Below, one piece after another: positions 13,375-44,930 of a DNA stretch of 64,000 nucleotides. The position numbers and the translations under genes were made by a program. The stretch is taken from contig RCSZ01000026.1 in assembly GCA_014898425.1 (NCBI GenBank), forward strand, positions 185,327 through 249,326, in the 5' to 3' direction. Positions within the stretch are counted from its first letter, which is position 1. Each line of letters begins with the position of its first letter. The notes beneath the pieces were generated by a model. The model was not told the origin of the DNA, made no database searches, and saw only the letters and a list, made by a program, of their open reading frames with translations. This stretch comes from Botryotinia globosa (Eukaryota; Ascomycota; Leotiomycetes; Helotiales; Sclerotiniaceae).

Positions 13375-13478
13375 TGTCAAGGTCACAAGATTATAAGTCA
13401 CGTGAGATCACGTGGCGGGAGACCCTCGAGCCCCTTTCATACCACGGACTCCTTCGTTTTAGAATATTTCATGAACCC
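13375..13478 (+). repeat. Gypsy-1 5' LTR, first 104 bp
   Basis: Starts TGTCAAGGTCACAAG and contains GATCACGTGGCGGGAGACCC. It is strikingly less RIP-decayed than the other copies at 31122 and 9496. It breaks off at ATGAACCC (13471-13478), and the rest of the LTR resumes after the same eight bases at 23682-23689. Confidence 0.85.
13471..13478. repeat. 8-bp target-site duplication of the 10.2-kb element, left
   Basis: ATGAACCC here and again at 23682-23689. The two copies directly flank the matching ends of the inserted element and overlap in the reconstructed Gypsy-1 LTR. Confidence 0.85.
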
Positions 13479-13496
13479 TTATCTCATCCTCAGACC
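13479..13496 (+). repeat. Left terminal inverted repeat of the 10.2-kb element
   Basis: TTATCTCA is identical to the right end read inward; the next ten bases differ only by C/T or G/A changes. Confidence 0.75.
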
Positions 13497-14290
13497 ACAC
13501 GTTGATTACATAATTTTTTTGGCCTTGATTTCGAGGCAAAGGCTTCACAAAGGATTATCACCATAGGGTCTGAAACAATTTGGTTCTGGCTTTGGTGTGA
13601 AAACCAACAATTCGTTATTTTTCGATTTTTCAATTAAAGGTTATAAATCACTCAACAATTGTATCACTTTGGTATAGATTCAATATATATAGATAGATTT
13701 TCTTATTATTTTGATATATTTTTTATTATAATAGCTTTATTCAATTATATATATATATATCGAAAACATGTATTTTTGAAAACCAATATTTCAATAAAAT
13801 AAGCATCTACCCTCTTCAAAATCAATTATCACCATTATTCTAATTAAATATATATATATCCTAGAGATTCTATTATCCATTTCATCCTCCCTATATAAAT
13901 AGAATTCTAAATAATAAAGTTTGTTATTGATTTCGAAGAGGTTGGGTGCTTTTAGTTTGCGGCGATGACCACCCCCCCTCCCCAATCTACCATTTCTATC
14001 GGTTGATTTATACAATTATATATACCCTAAGAATCCCCTTAATTCTAACAACCCCATTATATTATTTATATTTCTATTGGTATTGTTTTTATTGAAAAGT
14101 AAATAATCGGGTACTATTTTTTGATAATATTAATCATATAATAATCCTTTGTTTTTATATGATATATTGAGATCGCTTTTGAGTGTAGATAGAGTTTACT
14201 ATATGAATTGTAAGTAAATTGAAATGAAAGTGAAGTGAAAGTGAAGTGTATATTCAATTATCAATTCATAAATATAAAAAAAAACTCTGT
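13497..14290. other. Left subterminal region of the 10.2-kb element
   Basis: No convincing gene. Composition is mixed: 13497-13660 is only moderately AT-rich, with words such as GGTTCTGGCTTTGGTGTG, and later parts are AT-rich. A 74-codon open stretch on the minus strand (13791-14015) includes a G-rich run but resembles nothing I know. Confidence 0.5.
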
Positions 14291-14300
14291 TGTATTCATT

Positions 14301-14350
14301 CCTATTGATTCCTGAAAACTCCTGTTATTTCCTATCAGCTTCTGTTTAAC
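14301..14350 (+). repeat. Decamer array 1a
   Basis: Five consecutive 10-bp units in phase: CCTATTGATT, CCTGAAAACT, CCTGTTATTT, CCTATCAGCT, TCTGTTTAAC. It lies upstream of the helicase start and reads in the same direction as the gene. Confidence 0.75.
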
Positions 14351-14404
14351 TTACTATCGAATTGCATTATGTTCTATAAATATCTATTAATAAACATTTG
14401 CGAA

Positions 14405-14480
14405 CTCCTATCATCTCCTGCAGACTCCTGCTACCTCCTGCGGCTGCGGACTCCTGTCATATCTTGGGAACTTCTGCCAC
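14405..14480 (+). repeat. Decamer array 1b, abutting the helicase start codon
   Basis: Units CTCCTATCAT, CTCCTGCAGA, CTCCTGCTAC, CTCCTGCGGC, a 6-bp part unit, CTCCTGTCAT, ATCTTGGGAA and CTTCTGCCAC run up to 14480. The ATG of the helicase follows at 14482. This array keeps more G and C than the others. Confidence 0.8.
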
Positions 14481-14481
14481 T

Positions 14482-17334
14482 ATGTCTCCAAAACGGAGGA
14501 AAGCTGATGGACGTAAAGCTGATGAACGTTCTAAACGGGCCAAAGCTAGAAAGCTGAAAGATGACCGTGAGATTGCATTAACTGTGTCCAGCATACCAAT
14601 GGTGTCGATGGTTGGATTAGACAAATGTATGAAGCGAATTTATGAGGTTGAGTTAAAGAACATGCCTATAATGATCAAAAAAGGAGAGATAGAGAAGTAT
14701 CTTGAGAAGTAAGAGGAGCTTATTGGATTATGCTTTGAAAGAATCCTTTGGTTTCTAGATCCTATTGTTATTCAAAAACCTAAATCTATGCAAATTTAGA
14801 TTCTGTGTTATTTAATTTATAGGAAGAGTGATACCCTTTATATTACTAAGATTAGATTTGGAAAAAGTTTGATATTTCATTTATACTTTATTTTAATAGG
14901 AAAAATTATTTTTTAAATAGTTTTATTAACAAAGCTTGAAAAGAAGTAATTCAAGGATATTAAAAAACTTTCTGGAATATTATTTTATTTTCTGAATTTC
15001 GAATTATTGAAAAAAAAAGCTGAAATAATCAATCAAATTCATTAATTAAAATATATATATATTCTTTTAGATTCTGAATAAATAGTTTTATTTAAATTTA
15101 GGGGTGCATTTGTATTTCCTAAATTACAATCTAATATTAGGCTTATAGCTATAAACAAATGTTATTTTATATTATAATAAAAGAATTTTCAATTCAAATT
15201 TATTATATTGAAATAATTATAATATCTTTTGTTTCAAGAAGTTATATAATTTAGATATATTATTATTTTGGATATAAAAAACTAAAAGATAATTTTAAAT
15301 AATAGAGGATTTCGAAGATTAGATTTTCGATTATATTAAACATATATTATCTATATATTTGTTAATTATTCAAATATTTTATTAATGATAATCTCTATCT
15401 TTTAGAAACAAACTAAATCTTTAGAGTCTTTATATTATCTTTTAAACAATATTATAAATAAAAATGATAATCCAATTCTAAAAAAGATTCCCAAGATTAT
15501 AATATTTATAAATTCTAGAAATGAAATCGATATAGTGAAAAACTATTTTCGAAATGCTTTTTTAGAGAAAACGAAAAGCAAAACTGTATTATATTCTATT
15601 GAAATTGAGAATAAAAGCCTTAGTATTATAAATATCATTATTTCATTCTATTCGAAAATTAATGTGAAGAATTGAGCAATGAGATATGATAAGTTTACAA
15701 AAATGATATTAATTGCTTGTATTATTATTACTATTATTACTTTTATTATAAATATTAATATTTATAATATAAATCTAATCGTTTTTTGGAATGTAAAAAA
15801 GCAATTGATTATAGAGATATAATAAAGGATAGGTTGAGAAGGAAAAGAATTAGAATGTATTAGTATAATATATATATTCATTCTATATTATTATTTTGAT
15901 TTTAATAGATTCTATTCTATAGTATTAAAAGAATCTAATATTAATATAAACAAAATTCTTATTTTGATATAGAAAATAACAAAAAGATATTTTTTACTAT
16001 TTTATTGAAAGGTAAGATAATTTCAAGTTTTACAAACTTTAGAAAGTTAAATAGAAAATAAAGATTTGGTAAATAATAAAAAAACTAATATAGAAATCAA
16101 TATCGAAAATAATATTGTTAGTAGTAATATAATAGATTTCATTTCAAAATGTAAGTATATTTAAATGAAAATTGAGACAATTCAAAGAGCTAGTATTCTT
16201 TTTGTTTGATTGACTATTTGTAATAGTTTATATTATAAAAAAACATTCTTTAATCATTTTGAAAAAAATCTTTTATTAATAAAAAAAAAAAAAGAAATTG
16301 TTTTGTTAGAAAGATATTATAATAAATATAATTCAGATTTTCTATTTATTTTATTTAAATTATTGAATAAGGTTGTATTAATATTCAAATCTTGAAAGAG
16401 TATTTTAAATATATTTGTATTAAAGGTATTAAAAAAATGGTGTAAAATTGAAATATCAAAAATAGTAATTAATCAATAACAGTTTATATTATCAAATAAT
16501 TATTTTATAAAGGAAATTGTATACTAAAAAGTAGTGGATTTATATTATTGATAGCTATATATTGAATTATTTGATTAATAGAATAAATTGATTTTAGATT
16601 AGTTGTATAAAAAAGTTTCTAATCTTAAAGTATAATAATATTTTAATAAATATAAAGATAAATTAGTATCTTTGTTTTAAAGTTTTTATTCTGAAATTGA
16701 ATATTTGTATATAATATATAAACAAATATTAATTAAAGTAAAAAATACAAAAGAAAAAATTAAATAATAAAAGAAATAATAAAAGAATATTTCGAAGAAA
16801 ACATTGGAAATAGTAGTACTAATTTCAATACAAAAACAATTGAATACAATCTGTATAGCTTCGGATAATACTTTTGTATATCAAATATTTCAACAAAACT
16901 AATTTAAAAAGGGAAATAAACCTAATATTCAAATTCGAATTCAAATGATTTAATTAAATAATCCTTTAATATTGAATATAGATATTAGTATTTTTTATAT
17001 TGAAAATAATCAATTCGAAACACTAATTATTCAATTTAAAATAATAATACTTTCAACATTTATTCAAAATATAATATCTATATAGAATATAATATCTATA
17101 AAAAGTATATTAAAATAAAAAAGAATATTAATATTACTATTACTTGTATTCGAAGATCGAATTGCTAAATCAGGCTTATTCTTATTTATTGGTAGATTCA
17201 GCTTTTTGATTTCTATATCTTTTCTGTTTAATAGATTTAGATCTATCTTTCTTATTTTCTCTTTATCTAATTTATTTAATTCTTCTGAAAATATTAATCG
17301 AAATATAAATGATTTCCTAATTCAATTTCAATAG
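14482..17334 (+). pseudogene. RecQ-like DNA helicase, RIP-disabled, one frame
   Basis: One reading frame carries recognisable superfamily-2 helicase motifs in order. Motif I is TKIRFGKSLIFH (Walker A, GKS at 14860-14868). Motif II is AINKCYF (from 15148), where DECH would be expected; D to N and E to K are G-to-A changes. Then come a motif-IV region PKIIIFINSRNEIDIV (about 15490) and motif VI, a stop followed by R-I-G, another stop, E-G (15823-15840), where RecQ has QRIGRGGR. A tract with spaced tyrosines and cysteines (about 16200-16340) fits the RecQ zinc-binding region. The C-terminal part looks low-complexity. The ends of the region (14482 and 16210) are in the same frame, so no net indel occurred. 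It is about 950 codons long. Subtelomeric RecQ genes (TLH type) are known in other fungi; here the gene lies inside a transposon-like unit. The helicase call is firm; the 3' end is a guess at the first suitable stop. Confidence 0.8.
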
Positions 17335-17510
17335 AGATATGGATTTTCAATTTATTAAATAAAGGAAATTTAATTTAATAAAATAATATTAAAAATATAA
17401 TTGGATAATAAAATAATATTAGAGATATAATATTATAATAATAGTAATAATAATAAGGTAATATTAGAAATATAGATTGAATTATAATTATTTGTAATAT
17501 AATTTATTGA

Positions 17511-17550
17511 ACTCCTATCAACTTCTATCAATTTCTATCAATTTATAAAT
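17511..17550 (+). repeat. Decamer array 2
   Basis: ACTCCTATCA, ACTTCTATCA, ATTTCTATCA, then a decayed ATTTATAAAT. It is in the same orientation as array 1 and lies about 370 bp upstream of the Cys-rich gene. Confidence 0.75.
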
Positions 17551-17917
17551 GAATAATAATTCAGTGTTTTTTTGGTAACAAACAAATAAAAAAAGCAATC
17601 AAAATAAATTTATCTGTTATTTAACTTTGTACCATTACTTTGCTTTAATCTATACAAAGCTGTTAACTTTTATTGAATAAATACCAATTTATTTCACATA
17701 TTATATAGAATATTATATATTTGAAATCTAGTTCATATATAAAACATCGAATATAATGAAAAGGCTATAATAGCTATCACTGTTCAATTAGCAAAAGGCC
17801 AAATACATAGTGAATTTATTCGTTCTTTATATCCGTATATCGCGCCTTTTTCTCTTCCTGTGTTTATTTATTTATCGAATACTGATATAAAGATATTTCA
17901 ATCCATATATTCCTCGA

Positions 17918-18676
17918 ATAGTTAATGATATTGCGATCGTGGCTAGAAGCTCACCTTCTACACAACCACTCAGCTCTAGCAGAGCTCCATCTATTGTTTC
18001 GAGTCGACAAGACTCTATCGCGCAATCTTCTATTAATGACTCATTATTTCATATACCAACTATCTTCTGCGCAACTATTCATATCTTATCGAACGCAGCC
18101 TCTGAAATTTTTGATAATGGGTTTGGATACGAAAGTGGAGGCGGCGAAGAATCCGATATTGGAGGCGGAGGAAATGATGACTCGAATATTGGTATTGCTA
18201 GTGCCGCAAGTGGTGTTACTACTCAGCACACATTAGGCGCTACTAAGTCTAGCAATAATGCTGTTGCCGCATACAAGACAGAAGAAGCCGAAGTAGAACA
18301 TATTTCTAAAGAGGCTTTCAAGGAAATGCAGAAAGGCTGTGTAGTGCGCCGCCCATGGTTTTGGAGCGCTGTCAAATCCAAGGGGCTATATCCACCAGCG
18401 CAGCAACATAAATGGTGGTATGTGAGTGGTAGTGATTGGGACAAAGCCACTCCGGACAAGCAAAGAGATTTTAGTCATATTGCTCGGATTATGGAGTCGG
18501 AAATTGGGGAGCAGCTGCTAGAGAAGGAGAAATGCGCTTTCTGTCGCGATTGTGGATTCGAGTGTTAGATTTATTCTAAGCAAGGTCTGCAACAAGTAAC
18601 TCGCTCTGGTTCGATATGTGCTTGTTGTCGCTGGGTCGCTCATAGAGGGGGATGTAGTCTATCCATTTGTGTATAG
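17918..18676 (+). pseudogene. Cys-rich protein (DUF3716-like cysteine pattern), broken start and Trp stop
   Basis: An open frame runs 17891-18565 with near-normal base composition and no in-frame ATG at its beginning. The first plausible start is ATA at 17918, which one G-to-A change makes from ATG; the first alternative codon is GTG at 17939. The N-terminal half is Ser-, Gly- and Asp-rich (for example a GGGEESDIGGGG tract). The C-terminal part has WWYVSGSDWD and then CAFCRDCGFEC, followed by TAG (18566-18568) where a Trp codon TGG is likely. Reading on, the frame gives ICACCRWVAHRGGCS and stops at 18674-18676. Two cysteine clusters of this kind resemble fungal DUF3716 domains; this is a pattern judgement, not a search. 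The product may bind zinc. It lies between the helicase and an oppositely oriented relic. Confidence 0.6.
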
Positions 18677-18839
18677 TACAAAAAGATTGTGGCTGTCTCT
18701 CCTATATGTATACAATCAGTTGCTATAGTCGGCCATAGTTTATAGATCTGATTGGTTTTGTGGAATAATATTGATGGTTTTTTCCCTTCTTGGGTGTTAA
18801 AATAAAAATATTGATACTTAGGCGCGATAGCCTTTGTTT

Positions 18840-20440
18840 ATATCTACTATAATTATATAAAGCATTATAATGGTTTTCATTGGTTATTCGGTATGGAAAA
18901 ATGTTTTAACAAAAATATAGCTGTCGGGTAGAATTAATTAAATAATATATTTTTATACTATGTATTTTATAATTTTTATTTATACCTATGCTCGCATTGT
19001 ATAGCTTTATTAGATACTCAGGCGATTGAATAATAATTGAGTAGTCAATTATATTATTATTATTGAAATTAAAATATCAAGATTATAAATATATTTATAA
19101 TCTCTAAAGAAAAAATCAAACCAACTTTATTCTATTTTGTTCTAAATCTTTTTTATTTTGATTCTATTTATATTTAATTAGATCTTTATATGTTTATAAA
19201 GTATTAAAAAAAAGCCTTCGAAATGTTTATTAATTAATATAGATTTGTCAATCTAAAAATTAATATCATTAGTAGTATATTCTTATTAGATATTACAAAT
19301 CTTATTAAAAATATAAAAAAGGAAGAATCAATAGAAGGTATTAGATTGAATATTAAATATATGAAATTGCTTATATATAAGGATAAAAGCTTAATCTAAT
19401 CTGTTTATAAGAATATAGATATTGAATAATTAAAAATTATCCTTTTAAATAATTTTAAATAATATTAAAAGATTATAAAGTTGATTAATATGAGTAGATT
19501 TTATTGGAAAAGAATTAAGATTGGAATTGGAATTCTTTTTCATTTAATAAATAATGATTATTACTAAATGTCAATATATTTGATATTATTAGTTTCAATT
19601 TAAATAAAAATAATAATATTGAAATAAATATAAATCTACTTAATGCTACATCTTTACACATAGTCTCAGATTATTTAATATCATTTATTTGAATAATAGC
19701 TTTGATATAATCTTAATGAATATAAAGGAATGGAATCAAAACAATCTTATTATTATCAAAATCAATAAAATAAATAGGGGTGTAAGCAAAATTTGGAATT
19801 AGAGTTGGGATAATAACAATAGCAAAAATAGAAACAGGAATAATAATATTACTATTATTATTATTATTATTTTTATTAATAATGAGATTATATATAATAT
19901 ATTTGATATAAGCTACAATAAGACTAGTAATTTCTTACTTTATAATAAAAAAAGCTAAAATAGAAAGAGGGGTGATAGTATTGATAGAGATAATAGCAAT
20001 AATAGTATTATTCATAAGATTGATAATAATAATGATAGTAGATTTTGATGCCCGAATTGATATTAATATAATAACAAAAATAACAACAAATAAGAAGTTT
20101 TGCTTTAAAATAAGGTTTATAGTATATAAAATTTCATTTATTATTTTAAAATTGAATAAGGTTTTAATAATATATAAATTTGATAGTAAAGTAGAAGTAA
20201 TAATAAATGTAAATAATAAATAAAAAAAAAGAAAATAGAAGAAAATAAAGGAAAGTAGTATTGATATACTCTACAATTAAACTTACTTTTTTAATTCTAA
20301 TTATATAAAAGTTGATTTGAGGAGTTTCTATATATAATTAAAGATTCAATTGGCTATAATTGAAATAAACAAATTTTATATTATATAAATGTAATCTAAA
20401 TATATTTATTAATTATCTTTTATAATATTTCAAATTTATA
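18840..20440 (-). pseudogene. Unidentified gene relic, minus strand
   Basis: Heavily AT-rich, but one minus-strand frame around 19480-19840 reads like mutated protein: NFAYTPIYFIDFDNNKIV, a short gap with stops, then MCKDVALSRFIFIS and NNHYLLNEKEFQFQ. A Ser/Pro/Thr-like low-complexity stretch lies upstream (about 19900-20280). Decamer array 3 is just upstream in this gene's direction, as for the other genes of the element, which supports a minus-strand gene here. I do not recognise the family. The plus-strand open stretch 19972-20223 is probably a shadow of the same DNA. Boundaries are estimates. Confidence 0.4.
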
Positions 20441-20444
20441 TTTT

Positions 20445-20498
20445 AGGAATTGATATAAACTAATAAAAGGAAATAAAAGATAATAGGAATTAATAGAT
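20445..20498 (-). repeat. Decamer array 3 (inverted, RIP-decayed)
   Basis: On the plus strand, units in 10-bp phase are ATTGATATAA, ACTAATAAAA, GGAAATAAAA, GATAATAGGA and ATTAATAGAT. They are reverse complements of the CTCCTATCAA motif with G-to-A decay. It separates the unidentified relic from the DUF6589-like gene. Confidence 0.6.
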
Positions 20499-20558
20499 TA
20501 TCAAAAATCGAATTGATTGAATATCAAATCAAATTAATAATAATGAATTTATATTAAA

Positions 20559-23129
20559 CTATTTTAAAGCTTTATATATATTATTATTAATTATATATTT
20601 AAATATCTGAATAAAATCTATTATAGTATCTAAAAGTTCTGATGGTGTATATAAAGCTTGAATTAATTCTTCTATATCCTCAATAGTAATATTCTGAAGT
20701 CTTTTTTTTTTAATTATATATTGTTTATTGAATGATTTTATTTTTGTTTTTAGTATATTTTCTTTATTTTCCTAAAGATCTTTGAATAAATAAATTCCTT
20801 TTCCGAAACCTATAAGCTTGGGATTGCCTTTATTATCTCAAGCTAATCTTGTAGTCAAAGAAAGAATATCCTTTTCGATGCTACAGATTATATGTATTCC
20901 AAATATAATTTCTTTGAATATATCTTTAATCTTCTTTTTGAGAATATGTTGAGAGATGTTTGTTAAACAAATATGATCAAATATTTTATCTATATTGTGA
21001 ATTGAGTTTTTATGATATTACATATCAATTTGGTAATCAAGATTCATATGTTTCTGTATAAGATTAATAGTTTTATATGTATACAGCTTTTCTAACCAAT
21101 TGATAAAAGATGAAGTAAGTATTCTATGCTACAATTCGGGAGAGTATATCTCTAGTGTAAGTAATTATTTATAATAGAGCATTTCCCTTCTATATTTAAT
21201 TTGATTAGTTTCTTAGAATAGGAGTATAAGCGGATTTATTATCCGACGCATAATACCAATATCATTATATTTGATAGCTTTATTGATTGTTATATATATC
21301 TCTATTTCCTGAAGTAAATGATATATAGTAGTATAGTTTGTATCAACTCCTTTATCTCCATCCTAATCTTTTTGGGTGAAAGCTTTTTGCCGAATTATTT
21401 TCATTACCTTAAGGAACTCAACTAGTGTTATATCTTGAATGGTTTCTTTAATGAATTCAATCATCTCTTCCGTTTGATGTATATCATTGATTGTTCCAAG
21501 GTGCTCCTGTAATGTATGATGGAATAATAGTATAACTCTTATATTGAATATTTGAGATAATAAAGGATGTGTTTGATGATATTTAAGTGAATCTCTTTTC
21601 TACTTCTTTCGCTCTAAATCTAAAAGGTTGGCTTATATATAATAAAAGCTAATCTCGTTAAGGGAAGGCTTGAAATGAGTGTAAATTATAGTATCCTGAA
21701 TGATTATAGATATATAAAACTATAAAGTTAATCCAAGTATTCATTCTCTATATTTGTAAGGGTTAATAGATTTGAATTGCTGGACTTTAATAGTCTATAT
21801 ATGAACTATTATAAGTTGATTATTATATATTAATTTGATATCGATAGTGTAATCAAATAATATAGATCTATTAAACTCTGAAAAAGCTAATTATGTTTTG
21901 AAGATATTATTATGAATCTTATATATCCTATCTATAGTTTCTTTGTTTGTATGAATATTATTAAGCTACTAATATTTTGTTTTGTTGATAGGAATGTATT
22001 CAATATAAGGCATTTTGGGGTATAAATTAGTTTTCCAAAATATTAATCGAATAGTATCTTCTAATATATATTTAAATACATTGTATATAAAATGAGTATT
22101 TATTTGATAAGAGAATAGATCTGCTGCAAGATTAATAGAGTTAAGGATATCTCAGAAGTCCATAGGAATCGTGGGATTGTGTATAACTTGTTTGAGCCCT
22201 AGAGATGGAAGCTCTGGATAGAGAACGAGTATAGCCGTAGTCAAATTCTTCATGCCTTCAGTATGGCCAAGACTTTCATCTTTTTTAGTCTCCTTGAAGT
22301 TAAAGTTATTATAAACAATTACTATTTGTGGGTGATTTCCCCATACTTTGATCTCCTTTTTAGCTGCAGAAACCATATGTTTCATTTGATCATTGCAGTG
22401 ACTATAACTATTGCAAATTCCAAGACCAGAAAGTACTTGGATACAACAACACTTGACTCCGCAACCCATTAGGTAGAAATTAAGCATACTACATAAATAG
22501 TTTGATCGATGTTTGAAACGAGCATATGCTATTATACTAGTAATCATATAGATTCGTTGACCTTGGGTTTCCATATTTGGTTCACTCAAGTAACTAGAAT
22601 AATGAGAGCGTTCGTTGGCAACAAGAGTTGTAAGAATAGAAGACCAAACCGGAGCTTTCTTCTCTATTGACTGACTAACACTAGAGAGATCGATATCACG
22701 AAATTCGCTCAAAGGGACACTTACATCGAAAGTTTGAAGCTTTGATTTGGTAAAAAGAGCAGTGAATTCTTGTTTTAATATATTTTTAAGGTGTTCCACG
22801 AAGATATTCTTATATATTGTACTTTCGATAGATGTATGATTTAAAGCCTTTTTGAGCTTTAATTGTCGTATTTCAGGAATACCATTGATCCTAGTATATA
22901 TATCATTAAAAGCCCAGCTTATTATAAACTTATTGAATAATATTCTCTTCTAATCTATTACATTTAAAATATATTGGAATTTGGATTGAGATATTCTATT
23001 AGTAAAAGTATTAAAAGTTTCGAGCTCAGAAATAACAGTTGAAATCCTAGGTAGTAGATTAGATAGCTATAGTGGTAATAGGCTGGATAATGGTGGTGCA
23101 CTAAGTGGGCTTGTTGGGGTATCAATCAT
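20559..23129 (-). pseudogene. DUF6589-like protein, 856 codons, RIP nonsense only
   Basis: From ATG at 23127-23129 to TAG at 20559-20561 the minus strand stays in a single frame over 2571 bp, with no frameshift found when read line by line. About 18 nonsense codons interrupt it, all of kinds that one C-to-T or G-to-A change makes from CAG, CAA, CGA or TGG. The longest clean part is 22152-22799. Recognisable pieces: RILFNKFIISWAFNDIYTRI near the N-terminus, VLSGLGICNSYSHCNDQMKH, then IVIVYNNFNFKETKKDESLG, and IGIMRRIINPLILLF with REMLYYK in the C-terminal third. This layout matches my recollection of fungal DUF6589 proteins, which occur in many diverged copies. Acidic residues in the family, with Asn here (VYNNFNF), fit G-to-A decay. 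A role in transposition of this element is inference. The start is supported by array 4, 52 bp upstream. Confidence 0.75.
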
Positions 23130-23180
23130 TGAGATGTCAATTATCTTGATTATTGTAAAGAAAAATATAGGCGTTTAGAA

Positions 23181-23260
23181 GTTAACAGGAATTGATAGGA
23201 ATTGGTAGAAGGGGGCAGAAGTTGATAGAAGGAGGTAGGAGTTGATAGGAATTGATTAGA
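23181..23260 (-). repeat. Decamer array 4 (inverted)
   Basis: Eight perfect-phase 10-bp units on the plus strand: GTTAACAGGA, ATTGATAGGA, ATTGGTAGAA, GGGGGCAGAA, GTTGATAGAA, GGAGGTAGGA, GTTGATAGGA, ATTGATTAGA. Read on the minus strand, the motif is the same CTCCTATCAA theme as arrays 1 and 2, so it points in the direction of the DUF6589-like gene. Confidence 0.85.
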
Positions 23261-23681
23261 AGATATTCATTTCAAAATTTACTATAGCTTTTTCTATTAC
23301 ATTTTAATAATAATAATCTAAATATTATTAATAACATTTAAATTCATCTAATCAATATATTGTTATTGTATAGATTCATAAAATACTAGAAAATCATAGT
23401 TTTCGAATCATATATTTATTTTTTAAATAGGTTGGGTTTAAAGGGTATAAGTACATCTTCGAAATTCTCTTACCAAAGGTTTTCAGATCCTCATCAAAAA
23501 CACGATCAAATACTCTCAAACTTTCGAGGAAATAAATATCCCCCCCGATCCCTGATTGATTGTGATTGGTCGAAAAAAACTTGATCATTAGTAAGCCACA
23601 ACATTATCAAAAAGATCAAGATATTATTTAGAATTCAATGAAATATGTTTTATCGATGAAGAGAGTTTGAAAGTGAGATAA
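23261..23681. other. Right subterminal region and right TIR of the 10.2-kb element
   Basis: The last 18 bp (23664-23681), read inward, start TTATCTCACTTTCAAACT and form the right terminal inverted repeat. A 64-codon minus-strand open stretch (23394-23588) includes VFDRVFDEDLKTFGKRISKM; composition here is nearer normal, so it may be the remnant of a short gene, but I do not recognise it. Confidence 0.55.
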
Positions 23682-23689
23682 ATGAACCC
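23682..23689. repeat. 8-bp target-site duplication of the 10.2-kb element, right
   Basis: ATGAACCC, the second copy; see 13471-13478. Confidence 0.85.
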
Positions 23690-23860
23690 CTTTCTTTTTC
23701 GAAATATCCCGAAAATCTAATCTCTAACCTCGAGCCCCCATATTAAAGTTAATTTACTAGATATAAAATTATATGTTTTTAATAATTTTAAAGAAATAAT
23801 AAAAAGTTTTATTTCAAAAATATATTTAAAGTTGATTTATTGTTATTCTTTATTCTAATA
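23690..23860 (+). repeat. Gypsy-1 5' LTR, last 171 bp
   Basis: Aligns with the end of the LTRs at 31122-31396 and 9496-9768, from CTTTCTTTTT to TATTCTAATA (TA where the 3' LTR keeps CA). Together with 13375-13478 it makes a 275-bp LTR. Confidence 0.85.
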
Positions 23861-24469
23861 ATTCTTTTCATTTTTTTTTTAAAATAATTTATCAATTTTA
23901 AAAACTTTATTTGTTGATCAACTATCGATATTATTATGATTTTTATAAGAAGAATTTTTGGTGATGTTATGGGTATGGAGTTGTGCAATACAATTTTATT
24001 TTAATTAGGCAGAAATACTAATCAATTTCTATAAGATATTGATATCGATATGTAAACAACTTTATTATGATTAGTTAATAAAGAGAATATAACCTTAGCC
24101 TAACAATTTTAAAAAATGTGGGAAGATATAATAGTTATAAAAAAAACCTACAAAGTAATTATGAATAATATTTTATATATATCAACCCCAACCATCTATA
24201 GTAGTCTAGTATTTGTATCGAGTATAATTTATCAGGATTTCATTTCCTTTTTAAAAAAACTTTTGAAATTATAAAGATTAAAACAATATAAAAAAAAAGA
24301 TATCAAAAATATAAAAGATTTTTTTTTTTCAAATAGAGGTTATATTTCGATTTGATAAAGGATATTACTTTATAATCGATAAAAAAAAATATATTATATT
24401 ATCCAATACTTTGAAAAACAATCCCTAACAATATAATATCAATACAAAAACAAATCAACCAATAAACAA

Positions 24470-27400
24470 ATGAATTGGAAAGATTTCAAAGAATATATAT
24501 ATAATACAATCATAAACAAAGAATTCCAACAACAATTATTAATTTAGAAAATAATATATATTAGACAAAAAAAGAGTGAAACAATGAATGTTTTTGTTAC
24601 TTATTTAAAAAGATTAAAAAAAGATATCGATTTAGAAACGGATAATATTTGGAAGAAGAGGCTCCTATCGGAGTTTTTATTTAAAATAATTCAAAGAATA
24701 ATCAAATCCCCACAACAACCCGAAACACATAGTAATCTTATAAAATAAACTTATAAATTAAAAAATGTAAACAAACTATATTGAAAATCCAAAATTGAGG
24801 AATTATATTGTAATTGAAAATATAACCAATCCCCAATCCAAAATAAAAACTTTTACAAATATTTTTATTGAAAAGCTAATAAATCCATAAATACAGATAA
24901 TAAAAACTAAGGATTGAATCAATCCTCAAGATACACTTCAAATAAAACCAATAAATCTTCCGTTTATTTATCACATACAAATCGCATGCAAACAATCCAA
25001 TACTATCAATATCAACAAAAAAAACATTATATTATCTATTATTAAAGATTTCAAATATATAAATATTATAACAAAAATCATAATAAAACTAACTACTCAC
25101 AAAATAATAAATCTTCCAAATCTATTTATACAAAAAATATTTAGATTTAATAATAATAATAAATATTCTGTTAATACTAAATCTTCAAAAAGAAAAACAA
25201 ATAATATTTATAATTATAATAACCTTTAATATAAAAAGTAAATCAATAATATTCCGATACCTTATTAACTTAGGGATATAAGTTAATATTATTTAATAAA
25301 ACAAATATATCAAATAGAATTAGAAACCTTTTTAAAAAGAAACCTTGTTTGTATCTGCAAATAATATCACAATAGTATTATATAAAAACTATATTTTTCC
25401 TATTGAAATAAAAGATATTCAAAGAGAATAAAGAATTTATATTTACAAATTCATATCAATAATATTAGATTTACCCCGAATAAATACAATCCTAGGTTTC
25501 CTTTAACTATAAAAAATTAATTTTAATATCAATTAAAAATCGATATCATTTTAATATTGATTCTAAATTGATAATTTAAAAATAATTCCAATAAAAGAGT
25601 TTTATAAAAAAATAAAGAATAAAATTCAAATTTTTGTAATATTTCTAAAAAACCAAATGTTATTTTAAAAAAACAAAGATAGCTATTTAATATTTACATT
25701 TTCCCCACTTATTATTTCTAAAGAATTTAAGAAATACAAGAATATCTTTTTAAAAAACAAAAATAATCTCTTACCTAATTACCACCCGATAAAACATTGT
25801 ATTGATTTTGAATTCGATTCAATATTTCCTTGGGGTTTAATTTATACCCTATCAAAATAAAAATCTATAATATTATAAAAATATCTAAACGAATATCAAA
25901 AAAAAAAATAAATAAAACAATCTATTAACTTTACAAAAATATTAATTATATTTATTCTTAAAAAAGGGGAAGGTTATCGATTATGTATTGATTACAAAGA
26001 ATTAAATTGAATCATAAAAAAAAACAGAACCCCCTTATCCCTTATCAACAAATCCTTAGATTGTTTCCAATAAGGTATTATATTTATCAAGTTAGATTTA
26101 AGAGATATATACCACTGTATTTGTATTTAAATAGAAAACAAATGGAAGATGGTGTTTTGTATGTGATATAATTAGTATAAATATAAAATAATATCTTTTG
26201 GTTTGATTAATATTTTAGTTATATTTTAGATATATATAAATTAAGTATTAACAAGTTTAGCGGATAATATTTATATAATATATTTTAACAATATTCTTAT
26301 TTACTTCAAAAACCAAGTTATATATATAACGAATATTCGAAAAATCCTTATACAATTCTTTGAATATAAACTTTACGTCAAACTAAAGAAATATATCTTC
26401 TATATTAATAAAATTGAATTTTTAAGTTTTGTTGTTTTAGTTGTGGGTGTAATTATAAAACCCAGTTAGATTTAAATTATTATTGAATAATCTATACCAA
26501 ATAATTTGAAAAACATACAAATATTCCTTAACTTTACAAACTTCTATCACTGGTTTATCAAAGTCTATTCAACAATAATCTATGATATAACTATATTAAC
26601 AAAAAACATCTATAAAAAGAAAATAATAATAATATTCAAATAAACAAATGAAACCCAAAAGATATTTGAAATATTAAAAAAAGTTTTTATCTCGATTCCT
26701 ATCCTTCAATACTTTAATCTATTATTTCATATAATATTCGAAACCAATACATTGATATTTATATTAAATTATATATTGTTTCAACTATTCTTTAAAAGAA
26801 TTTCAAAAACATTAATCAAATAATAATATTCCATTACATTTTATTTAAAAAAACTAATTTTAGTAGAATAATAATATTTCATTTATAATTAAAAACTATT
26901 AACTATATATATCACTTTTATAAAATAATACTACTATATAATAAATAATTGATATATTATTGTAATTATATCGAACTATAATATATTTTAACACTTTATA
27001 ACAAAAAAAAACCTGAATAACTAATAAGCTAAATAAATTGAAATTTTAATAATATACAATTTCGAGATAAAGTATAAAACAAGAAAACTAAATCCTATTA
27101 ACAAATTATTGTATCACCCAAACTATACAACAAATACAAAAAACATCAATAATATGTTATTTATATTTCAAAATAAATTGAAAAACAAATCAATAATAAT
27201 AGAATTATTTCAAAATATTTCCATTGAAAAAACGGAGTTTTTGTGTAATATTATAAACCTTTTACAAAGGAAAGGGTGTGGTTTGTTATTCCATAAATAA
27301 TTATATTTATTAATTGAAATTGATTGCAAACAATTGATGTTTTGTTGGATAGTTTATATTTTAATAAAAGATAAAATAGTATTCGAATTAGTATTTGAAA

Positions 27401-28800
27401 TAATAAGATTTATTTTATTATGGCTTCAACAAAATAACAATTTTATGAAAAATAAAGAGTATTTAAATCAAAGGTTGTATTCCATTAAAATCGTTTTATT
27501 TTAACAAATAAACACTAATGGGTTTTTTACACACTATAGGAATGTTTATGTATTGTTAGATTTCGTTTTGAGAATAAAAATTCTAAAAGTTTATTATAAT
27601 AATTCTATAAATAGATATTAAAATATTATAAAGATATTTGAATTTTTAAAATCAAAATACTTTTGATTTTTAATAAAAAAAGATATCAAAAGTTATATTC
27701 AGATATATATAATATACCAACAAACCACTATCAAAAGATATAAATTATATAGCGAGTTATAAGCCCTTTCTATATTTTATAATCCTTGAAAAAAGATAAT
27801 TATAAACTTTATTATAGATTTATTTTTATTAAAATCAGGTAAATATATTTATAATATGGTTTTAATAATTATAAATAGGTTTATAAAACTTATTCAATAT
27901 ATTTTTGTAATTAAGTTAATTATATTATCAAAATTAGTATAGATATTGATATAGGGTGTATTCAAAAACTTTAGGGTTTTAAAGGGTATTATTTCAAATA
28001 AAGGATTACAATTTGCAAGTAAATTTTGAAATAGTTTTTTATTTTATTTGAGAATATAATACAAACTTTCAATAATATTTTATTTACAAATTAATAATTA
28101 AACAGAAAGGTAAAATCAGAATCTAATTCATTATATTAACTACTATATCAACTATTATTAAAATGACTAGGTATTACTACTATCACTTATAGAATTTATA
28201 TATAATACAATATAATATAATATTATAAATACTATTTTTTTTCAAATAATATATAAATTTTTATTTACTTTCAATTATATCAACAAGAACACTAATACTA
28301 CAAGGAGAATTCCAGTTATACACAAATAAATCGTTTTATTTAATAAAAAAAGAGAGAAATTCAAAAAATTATAATAAGTAGTTATTAATTATAAAACAAA
28401 TAAAACAAAAAATATAATCTTATATTGATATAATATTAGAAACAAAATAATATTGAATATCTAGAATATTAAACAATTTCGATTGAAAAAGAAGTTTTCA
28501 AATAGATTTATAAACCCCTTTTCAATAATAAATATAAAAACCAATAATCAAGTATACAAACTTAAATTATTATCAATCTATAAAATTCATAATATCTTCT
28601 ACATATCTTTATTAAAATTATAATATAAACGATTAGATATCACAAACCCACCGCCACCAAAAAAAATAAACAATTATCTTGAATATAAAATGAAACGAAT
28701 TATAATACACAAAAAAAGAAAAAGAGGTTTTCAATATTTAATTTGATGGAAGAGCTATTAGTTAGTAGAGAACACATAGGAAGTTTTTTGTAATCTCAAT
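24470..28800 (+). pseudogene. Gypsy-1 gag-pol relic (gag, RT, RNase H, integrase, chromodomain)
   Basis: Domains follow Ty3/Gypsy chromovirus order on the plus strand. Gag has RQKKSETMNVFVTYLKRL (about 24560). The reverse transcriptase start has KLDLRDIYH (about 26090), and the catalytic box reads YFNNILIYFK at 26281-26310 for YLDDILVYS. Integrase has INFIIDLFLLKSGKYIYNMV and ISNKGLQFASKF (27800-28030) for MDFITDLPPS and VSDRGPQFAS. A chromodomain-like EYKMKRIIIHKKRKRGFQYL ends in a stop and W-K-S-Y (28680-28760). The D to N and D/R to N/K losses are G-to-A changes. Stops are everywhere; the longest open piece is 27109-27300. Confidence 0.8.
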
Positions 28801-31121
28801 AATGTAAAAAGAGTATTAAAAGAATACAATAAAAAAGAAAAACTATTAATATAAAATTCGAAAAAAAAGAAAATTATAATATAATAGGATTTTGTTTAGT
28901 ATTTAATAACAAGCTATTTCTTTTTTGAAATTGAGTTTGTTTTTTTTCCTTTTATAATTGTTTGCCTTAACAAAAATAGGGATGTAATCTTTCAGATGTT
29001 GGTATTTTGTAGGCTAATATTAGGTATATCAATTCTTGTTATCATCTTTTATATACCTTTAAAATTAATTTATAAATTTCAGAATCAATATTAACAAAAT
29101 TCTTGTTAGAATTAGATTTGTGAAATTAATGTTAAGCTTTCTATAATACTTTATTCTTTGCAAAAGTTTTCCTTGAATCAATATACAAATGATATTGGGG
29201 AATTGTTATTATATCAATATAGCTAGGGGATTTTATAGTAGAATTAGATTTTCAATGTTATTATTCCAGAAAGTTTGATGGGGAAAAAGGATGTTTAAAG
29301 TCAATAGTATTTATTTCGTTGTTATTATATATTTCTTTTGTATTTAATAAAGTAACTTTATTTTTAATTACATTTGTATTATTATTTTCGGAGTTTTGGA
29401 AGTCTTTTTTTTCAATATCATTATCGTATTGATTTGGTGATAATAAAGTGATTATAGTCTACAATCTTTTGAATTAATGGTTAGGATTTTTATTGATTCG
29501 ACAAAGCTTTTTAAAAGAATCTGTTTAATTATTAGATTTTTTTATATAAACTTTTTAATCGGAATAAAAAGTTTTCAAACCAAAAAACAAATCTTTTTTG
29601 GGATTAGGAATCCAATAACTAGATATTGGTATATTACTAGAAATAGGTAATAGGGTTTTATATTGAATAACTTAAAAAATCTTACAAACAAAAAAAGGAA
29701 TAAAAGAAGTTGAATAATGAAATATAATTAGCAAATCAATAATAACTTTGCAATATATTATATATAATACACTTCAAATGCCATTCTTGAATCGAAATAT
29801 AATAATTATATACAAAAAGATAACAGAAATTTGATAAAAAACCTAAAAACCCTTATTATTTATTTTCTCATCTTCATTTTAATATTTATCACTACTCAAT
29901 CCAAAAAAAGAAAAAGATACTTTAAAAGATTTAATTCTATACCTTTTGTATAATATACAATAAATACAAAAAAAAAAAACATTTAGTGTTTTATAAATGA
30001 TTTAAAAAAAAATAGAGTTTGATATTTTTGTTATTATAAAAAACATATTGGATTTTGTAAATATAAATACAAAAGATATAAAAACCACAGATATTACAAA
30101 TACAAAGATTGGAAATAGTATAATTGGAATATCTATAAAAATTATATAAGGATATATCATAGAAGCAAGAAATTTATTTTTGTGATTTGAATCTACCAAA
30201 AAAATAAGATTAATAATAGATCTTGATACAATAATATCCAAAGAAAACAAAACATTTTACATTTTCAAAAAATATTAACAAAATATATTTGAAATCTAAA
30301 CAATAGATAATCTATTATGAAACAATAAGAATCCACAAAGCGTTTTATTAAATCACCAAATCAATCCAGTTTATTAATTATTAAAAGATTTAGTTTTTTT
30401 ATTGATTAAAGTTTATAAATATTTTTTTGTTTAACCTTCTTATATAAAAAAACCTTTATACTTTTCATATATCATTCCTTTTATCGAATCATAACATCAT
30501 TGCTTACTTTCTTTACAACATTATCCTTAAAAGCAGTATTGTAATATATATAGTTTTGATATATAAAATTAATATCGGGAATATATTAATTCGGTATTGG
30601 TATATAAAGCTTCTTTTGATAACAATAATAATTATAGAGGGCAAGAAAACCATTTTCAAAATGATAAAATTTATTAGTTAAAATATTAGTGATATATTTA
30701 GAATAATGTAGATAAATAGGAATAATTAAATTTGGTAAACCAATAATAGAATATGATATAATAAATGGAATATTATTAGGTGGGGAAACAGTCATAACAA
30801 ATTGTATATTAATTAGAAAGGATATATTATCGAAATAATTATATTATTTAAAAAAAAGGATTAATCTTATAAGGCATTCAATGATTTGTTGATGAGGTGG
30901 TGAGATGTATAAGGAATGCTATATTTACTATTTCAATTATTTGTAGTATAAAAAGTATAGAAATTTCTTTTCTTTTATTTTTTACAAAAACACAAAAATA
31001 CTTTTAATTTTATTTTTATAATAATCAAGATTTGTAGGTAATATGATAAGAGATTACTTTTTATTTTATAAAATATAAACAAATCATTTTTTAAAATATA
31101 AAATACAAAAAGAAAAAGTTC
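28801..31121 (+). other. Long 3' region of Gypsy-1, no identified gene
   Basis: About 2.3 kb between the chromodomain and the 3' LTR, also present in the second copy (about 600-2245 plus 8846-9495). Minus-strand open stretches at 30002-30250 (hydrophobic) and 30586-30795 (starting MTVSPPNNIPFII) are unidentified; they could be an antisense gene or RIP artefacts. The Gypsy-2 empty site lies near 30470. Confidence 0.5.
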
Positions 31122-31396
31122 TATTAAGGTTATAAGATTATAAATCACATAAAATCATGTGGTGGGAAATCTTTGAGTTTTTTTTGTATTACAAACTTTT
31201 TTGTTTTAAAATATTTTATAAATCCCTTTCTTTTTCAAGATATTTTGAAGATCTAATCTCTAATCTTAAACCTTTGTATTGAAGTCAATCCGCTAGGTAT
31301 AAAATTATATACTTTCAATAGTTTTAGAGAAGTAATAAAAAGTCTTATTCCAAAAATATATCTAAAGTTGATTCATTGCTATTCTCTATTCTAACA
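31122..31396 (+). repeat. Gypsy-1 3' LTR (275 bp)
   Basis: Starts TATTAAGGTTATAAG, where the 5' LTR has TGTCAAGGTCACAAG, and ends CTATTCTAACA. It is followed by the TSD ATAAA. Confidence 0.85.
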
Positions 31397-32380
31397 ATAA
31401 AAGTTATTAATAATATTATTAGATTCAATGGATTAATATTTATTTTATTTATTTTATTTATTGTCGATATTTTCTTTTATATTATTAAAAATAATCCTTT
31501 AATATTAATTATTTTATAATAAATAATAGTAATTTCTAAAGTTATAATAAAGATTTAAAAAATTTATGGTCTTATAAAAAAAGTTATAAATATATATAAT
31601 AGATTTTCAATTATTATGTTTTATAATTTATGATTGAATAATAATATTTTAGTTTAAAAGAGGGTAATAATATTATTTCAGAAAAGTAGAAAGAATCTTT
31701 TTTTTTGATATAGATAATGAAATATATATATTTAATTTATCTTATAGATTTATGAAATTTAGATTTATATTAATAAGATTTTATTATCAAATTAATTAAA
31801 TCAATTAAATTAAATTAATCAAATTAATCAAACTAATCAAACTAATCAAACTAATCAAATTAATTAAATTAATCAAATTAATCAAATTAATCAAATTAAT
31901 CAAATTAATCAAATTAATCAAATTAATCAAATTAATCAAATTAATCAAATTAATCAAATTAATCAAATTAATCAAATTAATCAAATTAATCAAATTAATC
32001 AAATCGATTATATTCTAGATTATCTTATTAGATCTAAAATAATTTTATTAAAATCTAATAAATTCATATTATTTGTTTTTGATACATCAATTATATATAC
32101 TACAAATCTTAAAGAATCTCTTTTAAATTTATTCAAAAATAATCAAATACTTATATTAATACTTTTTTTTATAAATAATTATATCTTAAATTCAAGTTTA
32201 TATACTAGCCGTCGGGGAAAAAGAATTTTTCAGACCATGGATTCATAGAAGCTTTTTCTCTTATTTCTTTAATTTTTATAAAAGCTAACCCCCAAACCCC
32301 CGATCCTTGCTACACTCAAGGTTTAGTTATAAATAATAATGATCTACTTATATAAGGAATTGCAATTATTCTTCAATGAT
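31397..32380. other. AT-rich spacer containing a 9-bp minisatellite
   Basis: No gene. The only structured part is the AATTAATCA tandem array listed separately. A patch at about 32204-32340 is less AT-rich, starts near GCCGTCGGGGAAAAAG (slightly like the Fot-like TIR at 37169), and may be a truncated transposon end. Confidence 0.5.
31801..32004. repeat. Minisatellite, 9-bp unit AATTAATCA, about 22 copies
   Basis: Nearly uniform 9-bp tandem repeat with a few C/T variants. It creates a spurious minus-strand frame of Asn-Leu-Ile repeats. Confidence 0.95.
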
Positions 32381-41965: not shown

Positions 41966-42393
41966 TCAATTACGCTGCCAATTGGAAAAAAATTGACATC
42001 TTATTAGGAGTATTCAAATCTTCATCGGAACTCATCATTCAATGTTGACGCTCATGAAATAACAGTTTCATCCCGAAAGATTCGATAAAAAGTTAGAAAG
42101 GATACAAGTGAAGCTCAAGGATACGGGAAAAGAGCTGGAGAAAATGTAGTGAGGGAGGAGAAGGGAAAGTAAGATGGTAAATAATGAAGGTGTTATTTGG
42201 AACCCATAGTGTGCTTTGATTTGCCCGAGAAGATTATGTGGAGCAACAGGAAGAACAGAGGGAGAGAAGGAAATTACGAAAGGCAAGTCACATGGAGGAG
42301 AGAAGGCAGCAAGTTTCGGAAGAATAAGATACTCTACAACGTATAATCATTATATCAATCAACCGGAGGTTTACTCGAAATGAATATGTCTAT

Positions 42394-42680
42394 ATGCTCG
42401 CTTCAATTTTCTTAGATTTCCCTATCCCTCTTTCTCCAATTGACGCTCTCCCCCCTTCAGATCAATCTATTTTAGTCTCAATCGAAGACTACACCAAACT
42501 CCGCTTCGACCCGTCTTATCACTACACTCCGCCTTTAACAGATACCTGCATTTCCATCTTTATCTCGCTTAATTCTCTAATTCCCCTTCATTACATATAT
42601 TTACTTGTTTCTTATCTCTCTCAAGAAATATTTGAAACTGAGTATCTTCTGCCAAATAAATACTAATCATTGAATTATAG
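42394..42680 (+). CDS. Hypothetical protein, N-terminal exon
   Basis: An open frame starts MLASIFLDFPIPLSPIDALP at 42394 and runs 90 codons to 42666 in DNA of normal composition. The first 60 residues (up to ISIFISLN) read like real protein, with Ser/Pro/Leu and a YHYTPPLTDT motif; the rest is less convincing. A possible intron starts at GTTTCT (42607) and ends at TAG (42680) with TACTAAT at 42661, which would extend the frame into AT-richer DNA. I do not recognise the family. It may be a 5' fragment of a gene whose remainder is lost. Confidence 0.35.
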
Positions 42681-42699
42681 ACACTGTATTTAGTAAATC

Positions 42700-44930
42700 G
42701 TGTTATAATCTGGTTACTGATAATGAAAATTAAGACTTTGAGATTAAATTAATCAATTAATATATAATACTTCATTGTATCTTCAAAATCTCATTACACA
42801 TTTAATACTAATGAATCATAAAGTTTAATCATGCGATCAATCATCCACCAACTTCACAATCATCTCGAACTCTGTTGGAAGTGCTTCTCTAAATCATGAT
42901 GTACATTTCCAATACCCTGTCAGTATGAAATACAAAAGAATTCGAACAAGACTTAATTGTACTCTCCCCACAATTACTATTTGAAAGCAGTAGACACGGG
43001 GCCGCACCGATTATATTGATACTTGATGTCGCTTCTTAGGCAACAGTTTCAATCAACCACAAAGCAGAATTACTGTCACTTCCAAAAGAGACTTAATTTG
43101 CTATTAATCGCTATAACATGCATTACCGATGAAGACTATCCTTAGATATAGGGCTCGGTGCACCCTCAAGAATGACTGCCGCCAGTGCGGATGGGGACCT
43201 ACATTCCGAGAACCCTAGTCCTTGCGCAATAGGACATGTATAAAAATCATTGATTGGAAAGTAGCTGTGCTCAAGAAGCCACTCTTTTACGCCTAAAATA
43301 TATCCAGATTAATGACGCTCTGTTGAGCAGACTGATAGTCAAGAATGTACAAGTCGTTTCGATATGATCGTGAACTGGCGATCGAATAGATATCCTGAAC
43401 TGGTCCACGACCACAGTTGAAGCTTCTCGGTTAAAGGCTTCGATCTATATTGATTGAAAAATTGGAACTAGCACAACTCGTTTGGCGTCGCAAATGATAA
43501 TCGCTGTCTCCTGATGTATAAGGTTACTTATGTAACAAGAAGGATTCGGCACCCAAAAATCCCCACAGTTGGATCCTACTCGTCGCTCCCAACCATGAAC
43601 AAAATCGCCATAGAGCCTCGGCCAGTGGACTTAAGCCACACTGAGGAGCCTGAGGTTTGATCAAACCTTGCTCCTTGGTGACGCTTACCGAGAAAGCAAG
43701 AGCTCGAGTTTTTGACATGACCATTTTTCAAGGAGAGCTTTCCGAGGAATAGCAGTCTTTCTCATCCTTGTAGATCATGCTGAAAGGGTGGTAGCTTACT
43801 TCAACTGTATATGGAATACTACATCTTATTCAGTACTCAGACACCCGTAACACATATTACACGAAAGGCTTGCCAAGTACTGTAATGGTACCGTATTATT
43901 CCTTCAATGTCCTGATCAGTGAATATATAGCAAGTTGTAGATACGATCTGTTGAATTGAACTTGCTTATGCTGGGTGTGATCTCAATTTCTGGCTCAGTA
44001 GCCGTGGAAAATACAGCAAAACAAATGTTGTCCAGTATTGTCCCAGGAAATCGGTAAATTGCTGATTCGTACAAAGTCATAGTCATCTAGCTACTCGTTA
44101 GAATGTGAACTACCGTGGGACAGAACACTTGCGCTAACCCATAATTATTCTTCAACTACCCCAAGCCTCTCGATCAATCATATCCCGATCTTGATCTCGA
44201 GCATCCAAACCAACAAAGTTAAATGCATCTCCATATGTGTCATCCTCGCCATTTTGAAGACGATTGCATTGATGTAGTACAAAGCCTTCTTCAATTTATC
44301 CATATATACCAGAAAAGAGGACTATAAAATGTTTCCTCTTGATGCTTCTCAATCATAAAACTGAAATGGATCTCGACTGGGTAATGGTTTTTCTTTATAC
44401 TCATTTAACTTCAATTAATCTTGGATACGATTTTTGTGGTGAGCATTCTGAAATACAACTTTACCATGGTTCGCTGTTGCTCTAGTCCGCCACAGCTCAT
44501 AAGCTATAATTCTGATGAAGTGTATCATCACTTGATGATACACGCTGTCTCCACCTAACTCAATCACCTGCCACGGCTGAGTTGTTATTGTAAATCTAGA
44601 ATAGATTGTAATAATTTTTGGACAATTGGTGAGGGCTTCACTCCCCCCCTGGATCTATATCTTTCTAGCAGTTCGACTTCGCGGATCTGGAATGCTGCTG
44701 CTGATCATTGCGACGCTTTTTGAATGGCTCTCTCTGGTTAGTCGACAGAACTCTTGGGAGCATAATTGTCGATTGAAGTCAATCCTGATTTCAGCCTTCT
44801 CCTTCCGCCACCCCAATCCAGTCACACGAATGCATGTTTCAGTCAAGACATGTGGAATTCTCCGCAGAAGGGAAGAAATGATATGAACAGTGCCGATTGT
44901 GTTATATGTGAATGTCCAAAGCATTCAAGC
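42700..44930. other. Normal-composition DNA without a supported gene
   Basis: About 2.2 kb with ordinary GC content but only short open stretches; the longest, 43524-43724 minus, is 66 codons. It has no repeat partner in the window and no motif I can name. It may hold a decayed gene or be intergenic. The stretch 44626-44930 lies just downstream of the Ulp1 gene's stop and would be its 3' region. Confidence 0.5.

What the first reader, a model, noticed from the sequence alone, without database searches (positions are those of the whole stretch)
13479..23681. A 10.2-kb transposon-like element carrying a RecQ-like helicase and a DUF6589-like gene
Seen: an LTR split into 104 + 171 bp (equal to the intact 275-bp LTR), an 8-bp direct repeat ATGAACCC at both junctions, and 18-bp inverted ends TTATCTCA... 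that differ only by transitions. Inside are four gene relics. Known: fungal subtelomeres often hold RecQ-like genes (TLH), normally described as telomere-associated rather than as transposon cargo. Inference: this is a distinct family of large DNA transposon in which the DUF6589-like protein may be the transposase and the helicase an accessory. If so, helicase spread at chromosome ends could come from transposition.
Basis: partly seen in the sequence, partly recalled or inferred. Interest (0 to 1): 0.95.

Follow-up and report, generated by a model that had tools for sequence, protein, structure and literature searches.

The report
Fungal transposon with helicase and DUF6589
A large, mutated jumping gene in a Botrytis fungus carries a helicase-like gene and a gene of unknown function that is probably its cutting enzyme, and dozens of smaller relatives show that the same ends really did move around this genome.

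Summary
Window 13479-23681 is a 10,203-bp insertion with an exact 8-bp duplication (ATGAACCC) that splits an LTR; joining the flanks restores a gap-free LTR. The genome (Botryotinia globosa) holds about 50 loci with these ends. Of 30 end pairs read, 17 have 8/8 and 8 have 7/8 TSDs, all eight mismatches transitions. Three copies (window, C11, C10) are colinear and are the only places found with the helicase, middle-gene and DUF6589 regions. 14 of the other 27 are 1.05-1.12 kb. Three 240-bp copies are 97.5-99% identical with perfect TSDs, so movement was recent; they keep 88 + 150 bp of the ends. DUF6589 is secure (E = 8e-26). A RecQ-type helicase is supported but weak. DUF6589 as transposase is the best inference, not shown: no homologue was retrieved and the fold prediction failed. 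Chromosome-end spread is not supported: two of three long copies are internal. The nearest described kin, AcademH and KolobokH, have other TSD lengths (secondary sources).

The parts
13375..13478 (+). Left part of the interrupted LTR (target), ending with the 8-bp TSD ATGAACCC at 13471-13478
   Evidence: joined flanks align without gaps to another LTR copy
13479..23681 (.). Whole element, 10,203 bp
   Evidence: TSD 8/8; two colinear sister copies, C11 and C10
13479..13496 (+). Left terminal inverted repeat TTATCTCA...
   Evidence: same end at many loci
23664..23681 (-). Right terminal inverted repeat
13479..13567 (+). Left end kept by recently moved 240-bp copies (about 88 bp)
23532..23681 (-). 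Right end kept by recently moved 240-bp copies (150 bp)
14299..14440 (+). Two arrays of 10-bp phased repeats (about ACTCCTATCA) just upstream of the helicase relic
   Evidence: chains 14299-14339 and 14405-14435; decayed forms in C11 and C10 (by eye)
14483..15950 (+). RecQ-type helicase relic; motif I to II region at about 14833-15225; end uncertain
   Evidence: hhalign 27.1 against a maximum of 21.35 in 150 column shuffles; WRN best of weak PDB matches; Pfam and NCBIfam silent
17512..17541 (+). Short array of the same 10-bp repeats, about 350 bp upstream of the long open frame of the middle gene
17891..18661 (+). Middle gene relic (overlaps annotated hypothetical protein EAF00_012056); Cys-rich, DUF3716-like part at 18506-18661
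   Evidence: E = 0.19, below cut-off; found only in the three long copies
20562..23129 (-). DUF6589 gene relic, 856 codons in one frame with 18 stops; candidate transposase
   Evidence: PF20231 match at 20964-22112; N-terminal indels between copies are multiples of 3
23176..23262 (-). Array of 9 phased 10-bp repeats upstream of the DUF6589 gene
   Evidence: decayed forms in C11 and C10
23682..23862 (+). Right TSD copy (23682-23689) and right part of the interrupted LTR

Best explanation
This is a dead full-length copy of a TIR DNA transposon family. SHOWN: the same ends with 8-bp TSDs occur at many loci; three copies carry the same three gene relics; short internally deleted copies share the ends; some 240-bp copies moved recently. 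INFERRED: the DUF6589 protein is the transposase, binding within the terminal 88 and 150 bp, cutting the element out and joining it to targets staggered by 8 bp. The RecQ-type helicase is a helper, for example unwinding ends or helping repair, and the zinc-finger-like middle protein may be another. Each gene has its own phased 10-bp repeat array, probably a promoter or regulator. Heavy C-to-T mutation (RIP-type) then killed the long copies, while copies of about 240 bp escaped it. The statement does not exclude that the family is kin of AcademH (first rival).
For: TSDs: 13 of 25 pairs 8/8 and 7 of 25 7/8; 5 further pairs gave 4 at 8/8 and 1 at 7/8. Empty site. Three full copies with own 8/8 TSDs: window ATGAACCC, C11 CTGGAAAA, C10 TTATTATA. 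Helicase and middle-gene DNA found only in those three, likewise the DUF6589 coding end. No other Pfam transposase in the frames scanned. Copies differ by 1,992 transitions against 180 transversions (window/C11) and 1,445 against 74 (C11/C10). Recent 240-bp copies.
Against: No transposase activity, catalytic triad or RNase H fold was shown for DUF6589. Two protein searches found no homologue and the only fold prediction had pLDDT 33. The helicase misses every curated cut-off; its best PDB match has E = 0.49 or 0.79, and profiles of three copies found nothing in PDB. 5 of 30 end pairs lack a good TSD. No intact DUF6589 gene was found although 240-bp copies moved recently (that search also missed the two decayed sister copies), so the active enzyme was lost, missed, or is not this one. 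The element was not scanned in every frame: the minus strand of 13479-15700 and 17500-18500 and the other frames of 20600-23681 were left out.
Confidence: 0.68

Rival explanations
1. A member or close kin of AcademH, the helicase-encoding lineage of Academ transposons, in which DUF6589 would be the Academ transposase under another name. (Not exclusive of the best explanation; it bears on novelty.)
For: AcademH is reported to carry a helicase and to occur in fungi including Ascomycota (passages in PMC10799480; PMC10045372); a RecQ helicase in Academ is mentioned in PMC3627910 (passage).
Against: AcademH is stated to make 9 or 10 bp TSDs; here 17 of 30 pairs are 8/8, and in the window the bases next to the TSD do not extend it. 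Academ transposase sequences could not be compared: the original paper is not held.
Confidence: 0.3
2. DUF6589 and the helicase are both cargo; the ends are moved in trans by another 8-bp-TSD transposase (hAT, P, Merlin or KDZ type) encoded elsewhere.
For: 240-bp copies moved recently although no intact DUF6589 gene was found in this genome.
Against: DUF6589 and the helicase stay together in 3 of 3 long copies. No KDZ domain found in the genome, though that search rang in no control either; hAT, P and Merlin were not searched for. Loss by mutation after recent movement explains the absence equally well.
Confidence: 0.15
3. A telomere-linked helicase (TLH) region that spread by subtelomeric recombination and only looks like a transposon.
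For: The window copy lies about 40 kb from a telomere and carries a RecQ-type relic. 6 of 49 listed places lie within 50 kb of a contig end against about 2.9 expected, a slight excess (some loci counted twice, C12 left out).
Against: Exact ends with independent TSDs at many internal loci; two of three long copies internal.
Confidence: 0.03

Closest known systems
AcademH (Academ superfamily)
   Same: DNA transposon with helicase, in fungi (passages in PMC10045372; PMC10799480)
   Different: AcademH TSD 9-10 bp, here 8 bp; transposase homology untested
KolobokH
   Same: RecQ helicase carried by a fungal DNA transposon (passages in PMC9587614)
   Different: [quoted passage not shown] here no TTAA target and the helicase lies on the other strand from DUF6589
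Zisupton / KDZ
   Same: 8-bp TSD; fungal elements that can carry accessory (TET/JBP) genes (passages in PMC12730594)
   Different: No KDZ domain found in the frames scanned; no helicase in Zisupton is mentioned in the passages seen
hAT
   Same: 8-bp TSD (passage in PMC12730594), TIRs and short non-autonomous copies (recalled)
   Different: No hAT domain found in the frames scanned; ends start TTATCTCA
Telomere-linked RecQ helicases (TLH)
   Same: RecQ-type gene, very low G+C (passages in PMC4522978)
   Different: Here inside a TIR element with TSDs; two of three copies internal

Membership tests
TIR DNA transposon (class II) | Terminal inverted repeats at exact boundaries | tested here: met
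TIR DNA transposon (class II) | Fixed-length target site duplication at independent loci | tested here: met
   25 of 30 pairs at 7/8 or 8/8
TIR DNA transposon (class II) | Encoded DDE/D transposase | tested here: inconclusive
   fold prediction of DUF6589 failed; no homologues retrieved
AcademH | Helicase gene | tested here: inconclusive
   RecQ-type, but below all curated cut-offs
AcademH | 9 or 10 bp TSD | tested here: not met
   8 bp; value for AcademH from PMC10045372
AcademH | Academ transposase | not testable with these tools
   no Academ sequence or model on hand; paper not held
KolobokH | TTAA 4-bp TSD | tested here: not met
KDZ (Zisupton) | KDZ transposase domain PF18758 | tested here: inconclusive
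   no Pfam match in the frames scanned; own-genome search empty but with silent controls
hAT | hAT transposase or dimerisation domain | tested here: inconclusive
   no Pfam match in the frames scanned; decay and unscanned frames limit this
DUF6589 (PF20231) | Profile match over curated cut-off | tested here: met
   91-93 bits against 27
TLH | Restricted to chromosome ends | tested here: not met
   C10 and C11 copies internal

The most novel reading that the evidence does not exclude
DUF6589 is the transposase of an undescribed superfamily of eukaryotic DNA transposons (TTATCTCA ends, 8-bp TSD) that carry a RecQ-type helicase as a separate helper gene, so that the DUF6589 genes of unknown function in fungi are transposon genes.
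Probability: 0.3. Interest if true: 0.8.

Novelty: new variant of a known kind. Interest (0 to 1): 0.6.

Why it matters
It gives a Pfam family of unknown function (PF20231) a concrete, testable role as a candidate transposase, with defined substrates: ends of 88 and 150 bp and an 8-bp stagger. If the helicase reading holds, it adds a further arrangement of helicase plus DNA transposon in fungi beside KolobokH and AcademH. It also supplies recently moved, little-mutated 240-bp copies as test substrates.

Tried and rejected
Protein homologues: three searches used; the middle gene found only itself; DUF6589 found none, whole (the 7994 candidates sharing most words were scored) or by residues 125-335 (388 candidates). 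IMG/VR scan with DUF6589: 8 pattern matches, none a relative. AlphaFold on the DUF6589 read-through: pLDDT 33, so no fold search was run on it. Helicase by Pfam, NCBIfam and PDB: silent or not significant. (hhalign) was mis-set as a global alignment and is void; one search replaces it. One search aligned the helicase pieces wrongly and was not used. C19:13734, taken at first for a possible TLH gene, is by its sequence a DEAD-box helicase (name recalled) and became the control. Codon-position counts of transversions were uninformative. The script mispaired three ends (C8, C11, C5); I corrected these by hand. Paper searches for DUF6589, PF20231 and IPR046496 gave nothing relevant, and one for Botrytis globosa with transposable element gave no paper; all 10 paper searches are used.
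Full report
WHERE IT IS. The window is the end of a 249-kb contig (C26) of a 45.7-Mb genome. A predicted protein from inside the element is deposited as EAF00_012056 of Botryotinia globosa on a contig of the same length. The window ends in (TTAGGG)n at 63887-64000, so the element lies about 40 kb from a telomere.

THE OBSERVATION. The 10,203-bp segment 13479-23681 has 24.6% G+C, inverted ends and an exact 8-bp direct repeat ATGAACCC at both junctions. Joining the flanks gives a stretch that matches an LTR copy at 31126-31398 with 77% identity over 273 bp; in a finer alignment there are no gaps over the LTR and the differences there are transitions. The LTR search listed 40 matches genome-wide, the window's own included (40 of 132 candidates scored).

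A FAMILY. DNA searches with the left 1.3 kb and right 1.7 kb found many further ends (40 of 71 and 40 of 55 candidates scored, so counts are lower bounds). I count about 50 loci, the window included: 39 left ends, nine more known only by right ends or a late-found left end, and two (hand count). Of these I read 30 end pairs. 17 have TSDs of 8/8, 8 of 7/8 with every mismatch a transition, and 5 are poor: two with altered left ends (L042, L046), two adjacent copies (L040) and one at 5/8 (L044). With partners shuffled among the 25 pairs, the mean number at 7/8 or better is 0.86 and the maximum 5, against 20 observed. 14 of the 27 pairs other than the three long copies are 1.05-1.12 kb long. Pairs not fetched, including C15 7.66 kb and C3 3.0 kb, were not read.

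THREE LONG COPIES. C11 (989055-1007337, 18,283 bp with nested insertions, TSD CTGGAAAA) and C10 (2140978-2151413, 10,436 bp, TSD TTATTATA) are colinear with the window copy. The middle gene was found in these three places only (3 of 3 candidates). The helicase region gave long matches in the same three; the other listed matches were at most about 150 bp and look like simple repeats, and that list was cut (40 of 59 candidates scored); a protein search with the relic again found only these three places. The DUF6589 coding end appears only there among the listed matches. So helicase and DUF6589 lie inside one pair of ends in 3 of 3 cases. The 7.5-kb copy on C9 and the 8.9-kb copy on C3 match the window element only at the ends; the C3 copy holds a copy of the LTR (C3:2946175), so its length comes at least partly from a nested retroelement.

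DECAY. Window and C11 differ by 1,992 transitions and 180 transversions; C11 and C10 by 1,445 and 74 (a few transitions next to gaps left out). The copies were thus nearly identical before heavy C-to-T mutation on both strands. I call this RIP-type; against a classical RIP signature, the changes show no clear preference for CpA over CpT (332 and 386 for window/C11, with 349 and 464 such sites in the window copy). The window copy belongs to a somewhat different subfamily at its left end and in the N-terminal part of DUF6589, where 149 of the 180 transversions cluster (108 at 13500-14250 and 41 at 22750-23250). In the first 130 bp of the DUF6589 gene the five C11 indels are all multiples of three (6, 3, 3, 27, 3), against 2 of 10 in the left non-coding end (13759-14131), which points to coding constraint; further down the gene C11 has two more indels (1 and 2 bp) and C10 has three of 1 bp and one of 60 bp.

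RECENT MOVEMENT. Three 240-bp copies (C7:1411562, C11:1222096, C9:1574935) differ by 2 to 4 substitutions and 1 or 2 gap positions, have about 40% G+C, and each has a perfect 8-bp TSD: CCTATACC, CTGCTCTC, GTGATGAT. At least five more copies of this short form are 77-86% identical. The three consist of about the left 88 bp and right 150 bp of this element. Of 17 substitutions between the C7 copy and the window ends, 13 are C>T or G>A towards the window. Inference: those 238 bp suffice in cis, and copies this short escaped the mutation process.

THE GENES. DUF6589: one frame of 856 codons with 18 stops, 23129 to 20562 minus, PF20231 over residues 340-722; the only PF20231 match that the six-frame search reported in the genome, though that search missed the decayed C10 and C11 copies. 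Helicase: plus strand from 14483. No curated model matches. The best sign is a profile-profile comparison of the three copies with RecQ proteins: score 27.1 over motif I to II in order, against at most 21.35 in 150 column shuffles, 14.3 for a DEAD-box protein and 12.7 for reversed RecQ. HHalign's own probability is only 5%, so I call it RecQ-type, likely but not proven. In PDB, 3 of 5 weak matches are WRN, the best at E = 0.49, beside a response regulator at E = 0.98; with stops read as residues 1 of 3 is WRN at E = 0.79; profiles gave none. Middle gene: DUF3716 is the only Pfam family reported, at E = 0.19 and 0.35 for two cuts, below cut-off; the annotated 199-aa protein, which lacks that part, gave none. 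No transposase family was found in the frames scanned; some frames were not scanned (see evidence against).

A NEW DETAIL. In the whole 64-kb window my pattern scan found four chains of three or more TYCT repeats spaced 9-11 bp, and all four lie in this element, upstream of its three genes; 20 block shuffles of the window gave one chain in all. Aligned sister copies show decayed forms of the same arrays (by eye). The recently moved 240-bp copies lack these stretches, so they are not needed for movement; a promoter or regulatory role is my inference.

MECHANISM. Cut-and-paste with an 8-bp stagger is inferred from TIRs, TSDs, an empty site and internally deleted copies. DUF6589 is the best candidate transposase by elimination and strict linkage. 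The catalytic core is not shown: AlphaFold on the single decayed sequence failed.

COMPARISON. Helicase-bearing DNA transposons are known: KolobokH in fungi (PMC9587614, passages) and AcademH in animals and fungi (PMC10799480 and PMC10045372, passages). Kolobok makes TTAA 4-bp TSDs and AcademH 9 or 10 bp, by those sources; neither fits. Zisupton makes 8-bp TSDs (PMC12730594, passages), but no KDZ domain was found. The original AcademH paper is not held, so whether its transposase is DUF6589 under another name stays open; this is the main risk to novelty.

VERDICT. A real, recently active transposon family with a new candidate transposase. The idea that helicases spread at chromosome ends by this route is not supported: two of three long copies are internal. 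All listed copies together show at most a slight excess near ends, 6 of 49 places within 50 kb of a contig end against about 2.9 expected (some loci counted twice, C12 left out).

Noticed in passing
window 63887-64000: The window ends in a telomere repeat array (TTAGGG)n.
   Followed up: yes
window 13375-31398: The target is an LTR; a similar LTR lies at about 31122-31398, so the target may be the 5' LTR of a roughly 7.8-kb decayed retroelement. Described only.
   Followed up: partly
window 14299-14440, 17512-17541, 23176-23262: Phased 10-bp repeat arrays upstream of each gene of the element.
   Followed up: partly
L040 (C5:2673200-2676100): Two copies of the element lie 13 bp apart in opposite orientation; their TSDs are unclear.
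   Followed up: no
window 52377-53324, minus: Open reading frame with a Ulp1 protease domain (PF02902, 23.2 bits against 20.7) in a G+C-rich island about 11 kb from the telomere.
   Followed up: no
window 42000-46000 and 52000-57000: Islands of about 35-45% G+C with open frames inside AT-rich decayed DNA.
   Followed up: no
C13:667841-668109 and C3:2946175-2946448: The LTR family has also inserted into copies of this transposon, so nesting runs both ways.
   Followed up: partly
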